From Epinephelus fuscoguttatus (lineage: Eukaryota > Chordata > Actinopteri > Perciformes > Serranidae), in assembly GCF_011397635.1 (NCBI RefSeq), contig NC_064771.1:15315379-15379378 (forward strand): a stretch of DNA of 64,000 bases, given 5' to 3'. Below the pieces are notes generated by a model that was not told the origin of the DNA, ran no database searches, and saw only the letters and a list, made by a program, of their open reading frames with translations. The position numbers were made by a program, and so were the translations under genes. Below are positions 15,401 through 21,400 of this stretch, in pieces (the first letter of the stretch is position 1; every line of letters begins with the position of its first letter).

Positions 15401-18400
15401 AAATCCCCCTAAATCTTACACACTGCTCCTTTAAGCAGTCAAAACCGCTAATAACTGAAGTAAATGTTGGCGTAATAATATTAAGGTAAACCAACATATT
15501 ACTGTACGAACAGGTAGAGTCAAGTCTGTAAGATAAGAAACAAGGTTGTATTATTATGTCACTATCCTCTGAAGGTGACCAGCAGTTTTCGCGTGCTGCT
15601 GCTGATCGCCGTGTCTCTGTTCATCGTCCTCCCTCTGAGTCTGCAGAGGAACATGATGTCCTCCATCCAGTCCTTTTCCGCTATGGCTCTCATGTTCTAC
15701 ACCCTCTTCATGTTCACGGTGAGCCCACCAACACACAGACAGCTGCACTCTGTGCTATGCATCTGAACACCTTGGCTTGGCTTACAAGGCTTGACAATCA
15801 AAATGCATGAGGTAGAACTGCCCTTGAGAAAGCCTTTTAACCACAGTAGGGCATGCAAAGTTGATCATAAAGTACAGTGATAATCAAACATCTGCAGTAC
15901 AGAAATTTTGATTAAATTTGCTTATAATGGCAAATGATTGCTGAGATTTGTTTTTGCACGTTTATGTTCTCTATGTTGTGTGTTTTCCTGAAGTAATAGA
16001 GTTGATTCTGAAGCCAATGTGCTCTTAACTGTTGTCTTCTTACCAAAATATGTAGTACACATAAATATTAGATGCATTAATAACCTGCAACATACTTCAT
16101 TGGTCTTGCTCTCTGTTTAAATGTGTTTGATTTCCAGATTATTGTTGTATTCTGTGTTAATTTCTGTTTATTCACTCCATTGTACAGGACTGTGTCTTCT
16201 TTACTGACAAAGTATTGTCTTGCTCCTCTTTTTTTAAAGAGCAAATTCACACTAAATCACATCAGGCAGAAAACAATTGCTGCACTGCTCTTTATAGGCT
16301 GAAACAAAGGCTTTCCCCTGGGAAGAAGACAGCACTTGGAAATGGCCACTAGAGACATTTTAAGCACTGTAAGTGTAAAGTAAATGGAGGTCACATAGTC
16401 AACTCCAGTAAATCACAAACAGTTGCACCATAAGGGATTTAACATTCTATATTTGCCCATTTGCTGCCAGATATAAAGATGTCAAATGCATTTTAATATT
16501 CCAGACTTTTTTTCAAGCCCATTTATTGCTGTTTGTACAGCATGTCAAACGCATTTGAAATATTACTTGTATTTTTTAGGGAAGACTTTTATTTTCTTAG
16601 CCTGACAGTCCTGTTTGCACATATCTTTGTGCCCATGTCATTCAGTGTTTAGTCGCAACAACACTGTGGCAGCGTGCTGTTTAAATATTTCTGAAATTTA
16701 TGCTAACCTCAACGGTTAGTTGGAAGATTCAAGGTCAGCCCTTTGATAACGTTGCAGTCATGTCTTTCTTTGAAACATTTTAATCATGCTGCACTTCTGG
16801 CTACATTCCAACCAGTAATGTCCACACAGGGGACTGTTTAATACAAAACTGATTTGTACTCCTTTAAGATTTTTCTTTTTTCTGGTTGAAAGATATATTC
16901 CCTTTCCACTGTGTGTTTTGCAGTAGCCTTTCAGATTTGTTTGCGGGGTGAAAGCAATACATCCACAGTGCAAACAAGCCTCAAATGGTGAGGACTGCAA
17001 CTAGCTGAAATTCCTCCCATGTGTCAAGCATCAACTCCTGGTTAGGTTTCCTTTACCGCTCCTTGTCCAGGAGATTTTTCAACAGAAGCTGAATTATTCG
17101 TAGAAGTCTCTTCCTGTTCAAAATAAACAGACCAGGTGATTAAAACCAGTAATAAAAAAAAGAAGAATAAAGCAGTTTCATGTTACAAATTTTACCCCTT
17201 TACTACCAAAAGTAGCATGTGTACGCAGTGGGGCCGCTATCTACGGTGGCCGACACAAAAACACGCAGACACAAATGGCCCTATTTGGAGCTAGTGTTGG
17301 CAGTGCAACACAGTGCACTCCTGCTCCTTTTGTAGATATAAACGTCTCATTCTAAGATAACAAAAACACAATTATTGTTTCAGGACACACAAAAGAAAAC
17401 ACACTAGCCAATATTCCATTTCTTCCAATATATCATCCTGAATCCTACACACTGGACCTTTAATTAATTGAATAAACTTAGTCTATAACGTGCCTTGGTG
17501 ACACGTTCAAATAGCTGTTTTTGTCCTACAGACAGTCCAAAGATACTCGCATTACATCGCTCCCAATTATTGGACCAGTCATTTCAGTACTAGTGCAAAC
17601 TCGGCAAAGGAGTGCACATTTTCATGCAGACCTTCCAGTCCAAACAGCCATCAGCACAGCATGGAGCACATTTTGGGCTAATAAACATAAATCAAAATCA
17701 GTATTCCCACAATTACTCAAATAGGACACATGGTGCTGCACTCATATGCCAATTAGGTAGTGACTGGTGCAGCTATTTCTAATAGGACGTTCTGTTTGCA
17801 TTTCACATTAAGCAGCACTTAACACACAGCTCTGATGGATTTTTGCTTCTTAGGTTGGGGTGTGGGCAGAGGTGCAACATACTAAAACAGTTGGACTCCA
17901 GCAGGAGTTTTCTGCCTCATGTAATTCAATTTACTCTTTAAATGCACACACAGAGTTTGTGTGTGTGGTTCTGTTTTACTGACCCGTATTGCTGCTTTCA
18001 CAGACCTCTCGCCGCCATTCACAGTCTCTCTGTGTGACGTGACGTGTAGTTCTGTAGCATGGCGGATAACCTGGAGCAGTGGTGTGGTGTGTGTCTGGCT
18101 TTAGACCCAGGCCCCAGCCCAGTCCAGACCCTTAACCCTCTAACAGTGATGTATCTCCTTCCCTCCCTCCTTTCAACCTACCCTTCGTTTCTCCTCTCTC
18201 ATTTGCACCCTTTCCTTCTTTCTCCTCCTCTTTTTTCCCCTCGTGTCCTCCTGCTCTCCCTCACTCTCCTCGACTACCTCCTCTCCTCCTCTGCACCCTT
18301 TGTTTGCTCCTCTCTGTCCCACTGCTGCTGTTGCTGTAGATAGTGTTGTCGTCTCTGCGCTACGGCATAATCTCAGGCTCCTGGGTGGAGCGGGTTCACC

Positions 18401-21400
18401 TGTGGCGCTTCAAGGGCGTCATTCAGTGCCTGCCCATTATCGCCACAACCTTCTGCTGTCACCCGTAAGTAAACCACGGAAACCACCCCCAAAATAACAC
18501 CACCGTAAGGGCAGTGGGGAGGGGTGGAGAGTGAAGGAAGCCTGATGTTTCCCCAGTAACTTTACGCTCCTTAAATCCCCCTCAGACACCTTTCTGAACC
18601 TTCCACCTACTCCTCTCAGTCATCCCCATTTTTTCACCTTCAATTTGGGTTTGGTCTGAGCCATTTCAGCTCTGTGAGTGTGTCTGTGTGTGTGTGTTTG
18701 GTGGCAGTAGTAAGGCAGAGGAGTGTAATATACTAAGGTGAAATCTTTGCCGCCCTCCCACCGCTGCCCCACGCCCTGGATGAGCAGCCTGGGTGTGGGT
18801 GTGGGAGGCTGGATGGTTATGGAGTGTTCCGCTGTGCTTTTGGGACTTTATCAGGTAATTAAAGGAGCAAGACGTAAGAAACACATGCTGATCGAAAACC
18901 TGTGGGACAGTTTTTGTCTAGATTACCCTTTCATAAGCCTTTTGTTTTTATCAAATTTATGATTTTACTTTTATTCATCACATATCATAGTCATTTTTTC
19001 AGCTGTGACAGGTTTTTTGTTCAGTATGGGGTCTCTTGTCATGTCTCTTTGTTGTTTCCCTTTCTTCATTTTCTCTGGTTTTCTCTCCTCATTGATTACT
19101 TTCATTATCTGTCTGTGAGCCATCAGCATTGGTGTAGCCCCCCACCCTCCTCTTCTTCGTGCTCTTCCCCCACTTGTCTTCATTTGGTTCGGGCCGTAAC
19201 CCCCCCTCCCCCCCCTCCTTCCCCTCAGATGGTGCTGTCCTCGTTCAAACACGGGCTGCTCAGCGGCTGGTGGCTAGTGCAGGTCAATGTGGTGCGCTGG
19301 GAGGGTGTGTTTCGCTGTATCCCCATCTGTGGCATGGCCTTCGCCTGTCAGTCGTAAGTACACCTCTCGCCCCCTCCAACCGCACAGGACCATGTAATGA
19401 AACTAATGTCAAACAAGATTCGAAAACAAGCTTCAGATTAAAGAAAGTCTGACAGTTGTCCTGTAATCATGTGGTGGGTAGATTCTTAAACCTACTGTCT
19501 CACATCCACAGTGATCCCTCATTGCATGTAGAAATTGAGCAAACGTCACAATCAGTGCATGTGCACTTGCATCACTCCCTTCAGCCAGAGCGGAGGGTTT
19601 GTGGTGAGTTTTGCTGTGTAAAGAGACACGCTAATTTGTGCTGGAGATGAGGTGGTTGTTAAGGGATTTCTAGTTTGCAACAGGAGGCTGCTTATTTTTG
19701 CTAATGTGCTTTTCACAGCCAGCTCATCCCTTTTTCATCTAAGATATCCTGAGACTTTAAAGACATTTGTCCACACTCTGCTTTTGTCATTTAGTTGTGA
19801 AGAGACTTTTAAGGCCCAGACACACCAAACCATATCAAAGAACTAGTGGCTACAGGCTTACATGGCCTGTGTCTCGGCCAAAAAGTTAAACACACAGCAA
19901 AGATTACAGCCAGTAGCCAACTACTGTGTATGTTCCGTGCCTGCATAAGAGAAAATGGCTCCATACCAGCCATAGATTTTAATTATACCTAGATACCAGA
20001 TGCAAAGATGGCAAAATGTTTCTAGTTTCCGTGTTTATTGTGATGATGTCACAGATTTTTAAATTGCCTTTCTTGGCTTGAGGGAAGTTTTACAAATGTA
20101 AAACATCCATGAATCAAAAATTCATAATAGAAAGAGTCATAATTATCCTTGTTGGCAGTTTGAGGTGCCCTAGCAACAGTTTTACAGACGTCTCTTTTAT
20201 AATGGTGGCCTATAGGGAAAATGCCTTATGGGCTGCAGGGGATTTTTTTGCTGCAGTACCGTGAGTGGCCACTGGGAACATTGTAAGCAAGGCTGCGCAG
20301 CGCTCCCGAGAGCGTGATAGAAGCAGTGGTCTGTATTTGTCATTAAAAAAAGGGATGCTGGAAGACAGACTGGATGGATTCAAGATGCTAGTTAGCCAGT
20401 TAACACATTAATAACACATTAACAGCGCAATTCAATGCTTGGCAATGTTTGCTTTACTTGCTGAAGTTTTTCATTTACGGCACTGATCTGAATGGCCAGT
20501 CAGAGTGATTTCACTCACAGGAGAAAAACTTTTTGGTGAATTTTCTGTTCATGTTCCAATCAGTTTTTCTGATCTAATACTATAAAAATGGCGAAATATA
20601 AATGGATGCTGACCTAGCTCGTGTGACAAATACTATACATACATTAGATTTTTTTTTTTTTTTTTGCCAATTAGTAAGAGGGCTTTCATGGCAATCTTTG
20701 CATTAACTTTACCCACAGTGACTGCAGAGATCACACTACTACTTGTCACTTCTCATGCTGTATTCACTCATTTGTCCGTTTTTATCCATCTGCATGCTCT
20801 GTCACTGCCTCTTTTGTCCTGTCCTCTATGCTTTAGTGCTTGCTCTGGGTTTGCCGTGAATTGCGCAGGTGAAGGGTAACGTGAAGGTCTAATGGGATCT
20901 GGGTGTACAAAGTCTTATCATTGATTTGAGTGTGGTGCTGGGGAAGGATGTAGGGAGTGTTCTGGTGAGGTCATTAGGGGCCAGATGTTTGGGTGGTGCT
21001 GCTGTATGGGTTTGTTTGTGTGAAAGAGAGAGTGAGGTAAGTGGCAGGAGTGGGTGACCGTCGCCTTGAGACTGAAACGAGACTTTAATTAAAGTAATCG
21101 CACATGGCCAACATAACATTATGGTATGGCGGGGCGTGTTCATTAGAAGTGAAGTGTGCGCACGTAAGGAGAAGAAGAAAGTGTGCACTTGTGTGTGTTT
21201 GCGCTCGTGTGTTTTTGTGCGTTGGTTCCCACTCGCAGTGCTGAGTGATATTTGGCAGGGTGATTTCTTGGCCTGCGGTCAGGCCGAGCGAGGCTCCGTT
21301 AGGCGGCAGGCAGCTAAAGCCAAACCACTAATCAACACATTGGACTGCCGCCACCTTACAGACACACACTGATGTATTCACAGGCTGATTAAACAGCTCT

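What the first reader, a model, noticed from the sequence alone, without database searches (positions are those of the whole stretch)
18340..19353. Mutually exclusive tandem exons 6a and 6b in slc38a10
Two exons of exactly 125 nt, 764 nt apart, have the same start and end phase, strong acceptors and the same GTAAGT donor. They encode homologous 42-residue segments (about 17 identical positions). Because 125 is not a multiple of 3, using both or neither shifts frame, so each mRNA must contain exactly one. Neither copy has a stop, and both splice cleanly to exon 7. I do not know whether this pair has been described for SLC38A10.
Basis: partly seen in the sequence, partly recalled or inferred. 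Interest (0 to 1): 0.87.

Follow-up and report, generated by a model that had tools for sequence, protein, structure and literature searches.

The report
Alternative twin exons in slc38a10
A fish gene for an amino-acid transporter carries two versions of one exon and, judging from its DNA, should use exactly one at a time, which would let the fish swap part of the region predicted to bind the transported molecule.

Summary
Exons 6a (18340-18464) and 6b (19229-19353) of an apparently single-copy slc38a10 gene are both 125 nt, share phase and the GTAAGT donor, lie 764 nt apart, and match at 17 of 41 full codons. With 6a alone or 6b alone the coding sequence is open; with both or neither it hits a premature stop. 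Each exon adds 24-28 bits to the Pfam Aa_trans match over the protein with no exon 6, while six shuffled exons add at most 4. A 191-nt AG-free pyrimidine tract, the longest AG-free run in the window, sits at the 6a acceptor; such tracts are reported at mutually exclusive exons. The swapped segment covers the loop before TM6 and part of TM6 (placement inferred). There 6a has Cys-His-Pro, as in 6 of 7 SNAT exons retrieved from the same genome (7 of 7 have Cys-His); 6b has Cys-Gln-Ser. From DNA alone, I conclude this is a genuine mutually exclusive pair that changes the transporter's substrate region. No RNA and no second species could be tested. The capped paper searches showed no description of it. 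It is a new member of a known kind.

The parts
12425..12514 (+). slc38a10 exon 1 (from ATG)
14576..14693 (+). exon 2
14882..14927 (+). exon 3
15106..15199 (+). exon 4
15575..15718 (+). exon 5, shared upstream partner; ends between codons
18147..18337 (+). 191-nt AG-free, pyrimidine-rich tract directly before the 6a acceptor AG
   Evidence: the only AG-free run of 185 nt or more (1 of 4247 on +, 0 of 4263 on -)
18340..18464 (+). exon 6a, 125 nt, peptide ending ...TTFCCHP
18465..19228 (+). intervening intron, 764 nt, with a C-rich tract and an 89-nt AG-free stretch before 6b
19229..19353 (+). exon 6b, 125 nt, peptide ending ...MAFACQS
19523..19561 (+). two TGCATG (Rbfox-type, motif recalled) sites at 19523 and 19556; weak evidence
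   Evidence: 22 TGCATG in the window
24747..24849 (+). exon 7, shared downstream partner (starts at the third base of the split codon, then QVLPTYDSL)
25273..25455 (+). exon 8
26781..26892 (+). exon 9
28313..28419 (+). exon 10

Best explanation
Exons 6a and 6b are an old tandem exon duplication in an apparently single-copy fish slc38a10, and each productive mRNA carries exactly one of them. Shown from DNA: homology, equal length and phase, intact splice-site dinucleotides, open frame with either, premature stop with both or neither. Inferred: cells join 5-6a-7 or 5-6b-7; mRNAs with both or neither carry a stop more than 55 nt before a junction and are removed by nonsense-mediated decay. The 6b branch point should lie within its 89-nt AG-free stretch, over 600 nt from the 6a donor, so simple steric exclusion is unlikely. 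The choice is probably set by proteins on the very long pyrimidine tract before 6a (PTB/RBM20/PUF60/TIA1-type readers), with decay clearing wrong products; this regulatory step is the least certain (about even odds). The product is two SNAT10 transporters identical except for the loop before TM6 and the first part of TM6. The 6a form carries the Cys-His-Pro found in SNATs and the 6b form Cys-Gln-Ser, so they should differ in substrate or ion handling.
For: Exon structure, frames and stops. 6a-6b homology far above chance. Pfam Aa_trans: 199.2 bits with 6a, 195.8 with 6b, 171.7 with neither, 170.2-175.5 for six shuffled exons. NG86 dN 0.51, dS 1.05: old, with some constraint. Neutral simulation from 6b to the same identity: open frame and at least 17 identical residues in 168 of 20000. 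The longest AG-free run of the window lies at the 6a acceptor; long pyrimidine tracts are called common in genes with mutually exclusive exons (PMC7969005, passages). 7 of 7 SNAT exons retrieved from the same genome have Cys-His where 6a has it. SLC38A10 is listed as an RBM20 splicing target in tables of two reviews (PMC5793171, PMC8468976, passages), exon not stated.
Against: No RNA evidence for either junction and no other species. dS is near saturation and dN/dS of about 0.5 is not strong constraint; LWL85 and YN00 gave no value. 4313 of 20000 neutral descendants kept an open frame, so openness alone is weak. Scanned alone, neither exon peptide matched a Pfam family. The PDB matches do not favour 6a (22.3 bits with 6a, 22.8 with 6b for PAT1), and the alignment of exon 6 to SLC38A9 is not significant (i-Evalue 56). 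The 7 SNAT exons were retrieved with a peptide that itself contains Cys-His-Pro, so the sample is biased towards it; over 13 TM6 positions 6a matches that peptide at 7 and 6b at 6 (hand count). Pyrimidine content as high as the 6a tract occurs elsewhere in the window. The branch point is not mapped. Base pairing between a G-rich intron element and the two tracts is not distinctive.
Confidence: 0.87

Rival explanations
1. Only 6b is used; 6a is a relic or poison exon. Including 6a with 6b would give a decayed mRNA and lower SLC38A10 levels.
For: 6b is nearer than 6a to a mammalian SLC38A10 sequence recalled from memory (76% against 50%). Double inclusion gives a premature stop.
Against: 6a alone keeps the frame, and within the protein its peptide fits the transporter profile as well as 6b (199.2 against 195.8 bits) and far better than shuffles. 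It keeps the SNAT Cys-His-Pro, which a relic would have no reason to keep.
Confidence: 0.09
2. Both exons are used, but the choice itself is not exclusive: the spliceosome makes all four combinations and decay of the frameshifted ones creates the exclusivity. This overlaps with the best explanation, which leaves open how exclusivity is enforced; it is a rival only to regulated choice.
For: No obvious steric constraint in a 764-nt intron; consensus-looking splice sites on both exons, judged by eye. In Hatje et al. (PMC5740500, passage), reads joining two MXEs are tolerated when joint inclusion shifts the frame.
Against: The unusual 191-nt AG-free tract at 6a suggests dedicated regulation.
Confidence: 0.3
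3. A single G-rich intron element (18505-18540) pairs with either the 6a or the 6b pyrimidine tract, so only one acceptor is free at a time (competing RNA structure).
For: Imperfect inverted repeats link this element to both tracts (71% and 76% complementary); it is the best partner of the 6a tract among windows scanned in 15719-24746 (-40.2 against -33.6 kcal/mol for the next).
Against: The element pairs better elsewhere (-42.6 at 18744-18779, -41.5 at 22328-22363); windows in the 6b AG-free stretch rank only seventh and tenth among its partners, and it is second among partners of the 6b tract. Purine-rich against pyrimidine-rich matches arise easily by chance, and conservation is untestable here.
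Confidence: 0.05

Closest known systems
Mutually exclusive tandem-duplicated exons of vertebrates (e.g. SLC25A3, CACNA1C, TPM1, OGDH 4a/4b)
   Same: Adjacent homologous exons of equal length and phase, frame-incompatible with each other; a long AG-free pyrimidine tract at one acceptor, as in OGDH (PMC7969005, passages).
   Different: No RNA evidence yet. The tract precedes the upstream exon rather than lying in the intervening intron, so the clash between branch point and upstream 5' splice site described for OGDH does not apply.
SLC38A10 (SNAT10) of mammals
   Same: Exon-by-exon similarity to a mammalian sequence recalled from memory; 6b corresponds to its single exon 6 as I recall it.
   Different: The fish gene has a second exon 6 (6a) that I do not recall in mammals and that did not appear in what I saw of the papers.
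SNAT transporters (other SLC38 members) of the same genome
   Same: 6a shares Cys-His-Pro in TM6 with 6 of 7 retrieved exons (7 of 7 share Cys-His).
   Different: The remaining slc38a10 sequence is distant from them, 6b has Cys-Gln-Ser there, and outside this motif 6a is hardly closer to them than 6b.

Membership tests
Mutually exclusive exon pair | Two neighbouring internal exons with homologous sequence | tested here: met
   17 of 41 codons; E 1.9e-10 in window; each is the other's best further hit in the genome
Mutually exclusive exon pair | Same phase at both ends, intact splice-site dinucleotides, no stop | tested here: met
Mutually exclusive exon pair | Joint inclusion or joint skipping breaks the frame (seen in a subset of known pairs) | tested here: met
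   stops after 221 and 205 residues
Mutually exclusive exon pair | Splice-junction reads for each exon and none (or only frameshifted) joining them | not testable with these tools
   no transcriptome held
Mutually exclusive exon pair | Both copies under purifying selection across species | not testable with these tools
   no relatives of the genome held; scans of viral and genome contigs gave nothing usable
Amino acid transporter family Aa_trans (PF01490) | Domain match above the curated cut-off | tested here: met
   199.2 and 195.8 bits against cut-off 25.6
SLC38A10 | Orthology to vertebrate SLC38A10 rather than another SLC38 | tested here: inconclusive
Distant-branch-point/megaPPT acceptor | Long AG-free pyrimidine tract upstream of the acceptor | tested here: met
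   191 nt at 6a; ten other acceptors 19-112 nt
Distant-branch-point/megaPPT acceptor | Tract lies in the intervening intron, close to the partner 5' splice site | tested here: not met
   The tract lies before the upstream exon, about 2.4 kb from the exon 5 donor
Distant-branch-point/megaPPT acceptor | Branch point mapped far upstream of the acceptor | not testable with these tools
   needs lariat RT-PCR

The most novel reading that the evidence does not exclude
Exon choice switches the SLC38-type Cys-His-Pro in TM6 on (6a) or off (6b), so one gene yields two SNAT10 transporters with different substrate or ion coupling under tissue-specific control, and mammals kept only the 6b form. The His-bearing form would be the more SNAT-like.
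Probability: 0.35. Interest if true: 0.72.

Novelty: new member of a known kind. Interest (0 to 1): 0.52.

Why it matters
SLC38A10 is poorly understood; one study reports transport of glutamine, glutamate and aspartate and suggests a role in neurotransmission (PMC5458457, title and passages). A natural pair of isoforms that differ only around TM6 is a ready-made experiment on which residues set its specificity. It also marks a splicing event that surveys starting from human annotation would miss if the partner exon is absent in mammals.

Tried and rejected
Other copies of the pair in the genome: none convincing; slc38a10 appears single-copy, so a retained duplicate gene could not date the exon duplication. 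The weak further hits (6a at C11 E 0.295 and C6 E 2.73; 6b at C10 E 0.63) fit chance but were not settled: one search printed only forward frames of the C11 and C6 loci, and the C6 match is on the reverse strand. Three weak hits of a 6a-7 peptide (C14, C2, C21; E 6.4-9.9) were not inspected. Contaminant vertebrate contigs: two viral scans gave 6 pattern matches each and no relative; the prokaryote scan gave one weak hit, a chance stretch in an unrelated bacterial frame. Competing RNA structure: not distinctive. Hydropathy of the two isoforms: no marked difference. Rfam and tRNA scans: nothing. Ka/Ks across fish and RNA-seq: no data held.

Papers: no description of the pair in what I saw. Listings (titles and abstract starts): SLC38A10 + mutually exclusive, 5 of 5 papers; SLC38A10, 40 of 182; SLC38A10 + fish + exon, 20 of 35; SLC38A10 + alternative splicing, 18 of 18. 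Broader searches were capped and mostly off topic: 25 of 27, 12 of 8,904, 15 of 1,632, 8 of 29,486. Passages only were read from PMC9741552 (no 'SLC38' in its main text), PMC5740500 (not returned, so its held text does not name SLC38A10), PMC3699530, PMC5793171, PMC8468976, PMC8378409, PMC7969005, PMC9906736 and PMC5458457. Supplements could not be read.
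Full report
What is there. The window is G000:C20:15315379-15379378 of a 1.05-Gb genome in 26 contigs, evidently a fish (inferred, not named). Exons 6a (18340-18464) and 6b (19229-19353) are 125 nt each, separated by 764 nt, with AG acceptors and GTAAGT donors. They agree at 73 of 125 bases and 17 of 41 full codons. With either one the joined coding sequence (1122 nt to the end of exon 10) is open. With both there is a stop after 221 residues, inside 6b and 76 nt before the 6b/7 junction; with neither, after 205 residues, inside exon 8 and about 160 nt before the 8/9 junction (distances calculated). 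Both faulty forms meet the usual 50-55 nt rule for nonsense-mediated decay (rule recalled).

Is it more than chance? 6a finds 6b at E 1.9e-10 in the window, with the next match at 0.17. In the whole genome each is the other's only hit below E 0.1 apart from itself (these searches score only the best candidates, 4 and 5 here), and the full protein finds this locus plus distant members of the family, the best at 5.3e-5. The copies are old: NG86 dN 0.51 and dS 1.05, though two other estimators gave no value and dS is near saturation. If 6a were a neutral descendant of 6b, an open frame would survive in 4313 of 20000 simulations, and an open frame with at least 17 identical residues in 168 of 20000. 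This simple simulation ignores insertions, deletions and loss of splice sites, which would lower the figure.

Is 6a real coding sequence? The strongest test is the Pfam Aa_trans profile. The protein scores 199.2 bits with 6a and 195.8 with 6b, 171.7 with neither, and 170.2-175.5 with six shuffled exons (6 of the 8 shuffles made were scanned). 6a therefore contributes as much family signal as 6b. On their own the two 42-residue peptides match no Pfam family.

Where in the protein? Against solved structures the only match below E 0.001 is PAT1 (9v3t; 22.3 bits with 6a, 22.8 with 6b), with SLC38A9 (6c08, 7kgv) at E 0.12-0.22. In the PAT1 alignment the end of exon 6 falls opposite FSFEGIG, just before VLPLENK; I take this as the loop before TM6 and the first part of TM6 (helix numbering recalled). 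In the weak second segment of the SLC38A9 alignment (i-Evalue 56, not significant) a His stands opposite the His of 6a. In SNAT2 docking models Phe301 of TM6 is part of the substrate pocket, its contact being described as through main-chain carbonyls (PMC9906736, passages). The 14-residue spacing of Phe301 and Glu315 given there is also found in the SNAT exons of this genome; on that basis I place Phe301 at Thr in 6a and Met in 6b (inference; SNAT2 itself was not fetched). If the contact is by main chain, this side-chain change may matter less than the motif change next to it.

The motif. Of 7 SNAT exons retrieved from this genome, 7 have Cys-His and 6 have Cys-His-Pro at the end of the exon-6 segment; 6a has Cys-His-Pro and 6b has Cys-Gln-Ser. 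Cautions: the query peptide itself contained Cys-His-Pro, the 7 do not cover every SLC38 gene, and over the 13 TM6 positions 6a matches the query peptide at 7 and 6b at 6 (hand count), so the motif, not overall similarity, is what separates them.

How might the choice be made? The acceptor of 6a is preceded by 191 nt without AG, the longest AG-free run in the window (the only run of at least 185 among 4247 on the + strand and 4263 on the - strand). The other ten acceptors examined have 19-112 nt, 6b having 89. By pyrimidine content the tract is extreme but not unique (16 of 63814 windows as rich or richer, some near position 725). Such tracts bind regulators and are called common in genes with mutually exclusive exons in work on OGDH, where PTBP1 inhibited inclusion of both exons and RBM20 repressed mainly one (PMC7969005, passages). 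In OGDH the tract lies between the two exons and exclusion is enforced by branch points too near the upstream donor. Here it lies before 6a, about 2.4 kb from exon 5's donor, so that mechanism cannot be copied directly. I favour protein-regulated use of 6a with decay of wrong combinations; splicing without regulated choice, cleaned up by decay, remains possible. Two TGCATG sites follow 6b, weak evidence given 22 in the window. A G-rich intron element could pair with both tracts, but its pairing is not distinctive. SLC38A10 is listed as an RBM20 target in two review tables, exon not given.

What is known? Mutually exclusive tandem exons are a well-described class; [quoted passage not shown] The searches naming SLC38A10, whose listings were complete only, showed no description of this pair. 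A paper in which human SLC38A10 skips its second exon concerns another exon (PMC3699530, passages). Supplements were not readable, and annotation databases, which I could not query, may list both exons as predicted isoforms.

What remains open. RNA use, tissue pattern, presence in other species, selection on each exon and functional difference are all untested. A recalled mammalian sequence is closer to 6b (76%) than to 6a (50%), and 6a-6b identity is 17 of 41, which would put the duplication before the fish-tetrapod split if the recalled letters are right and rates were equal; I treat this only as a lead.

Noticed in passing
window 40508-41623 (-): Open 371-residue frame of a Tc1-like transposase (Pfam HTH_Tnp_Tc3_2 and DDE_3).
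   Followed up: partly
window 58587-59834 (-): Open frame matching the Major Facilitator Superfamily (MFS_1), possibly a monocarboxylate transporter exon (family name recalled).
   Followed up: partly
window 32930-34213 (+): Long open frame rich in Lys/Glu repeats, probably a large C-terminal tail exon of slc38a10; no Pfam family.
   Followed up: partly
window 43534-44482 (+): Open frames on the + strand that from memory resemble TEPSIN, a neighbour of human SLC38A10 (recalled); the 43817-44482 frame has no Pfam match, the 43534-43884 frame was not scanned.
   Followed up: no
PMC8378409 primer table: A microexon-splicing paper lists mouse Slc38a10 RT-PCR primers, suggesting another regulated exon in this gene.
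   Followed up: no
L005/L024 (G000:C9:787930-788133): A frame resembling PAT1 (SLC36) reads ...MQVLPLENKM and seems to open as an exon at VLPLENKM, close to where slc38a10 exon 7 starts before VLPTYDSL; the intron after exon 6 may be ancient in the wider family (exon start inferred).
   Followed up: no
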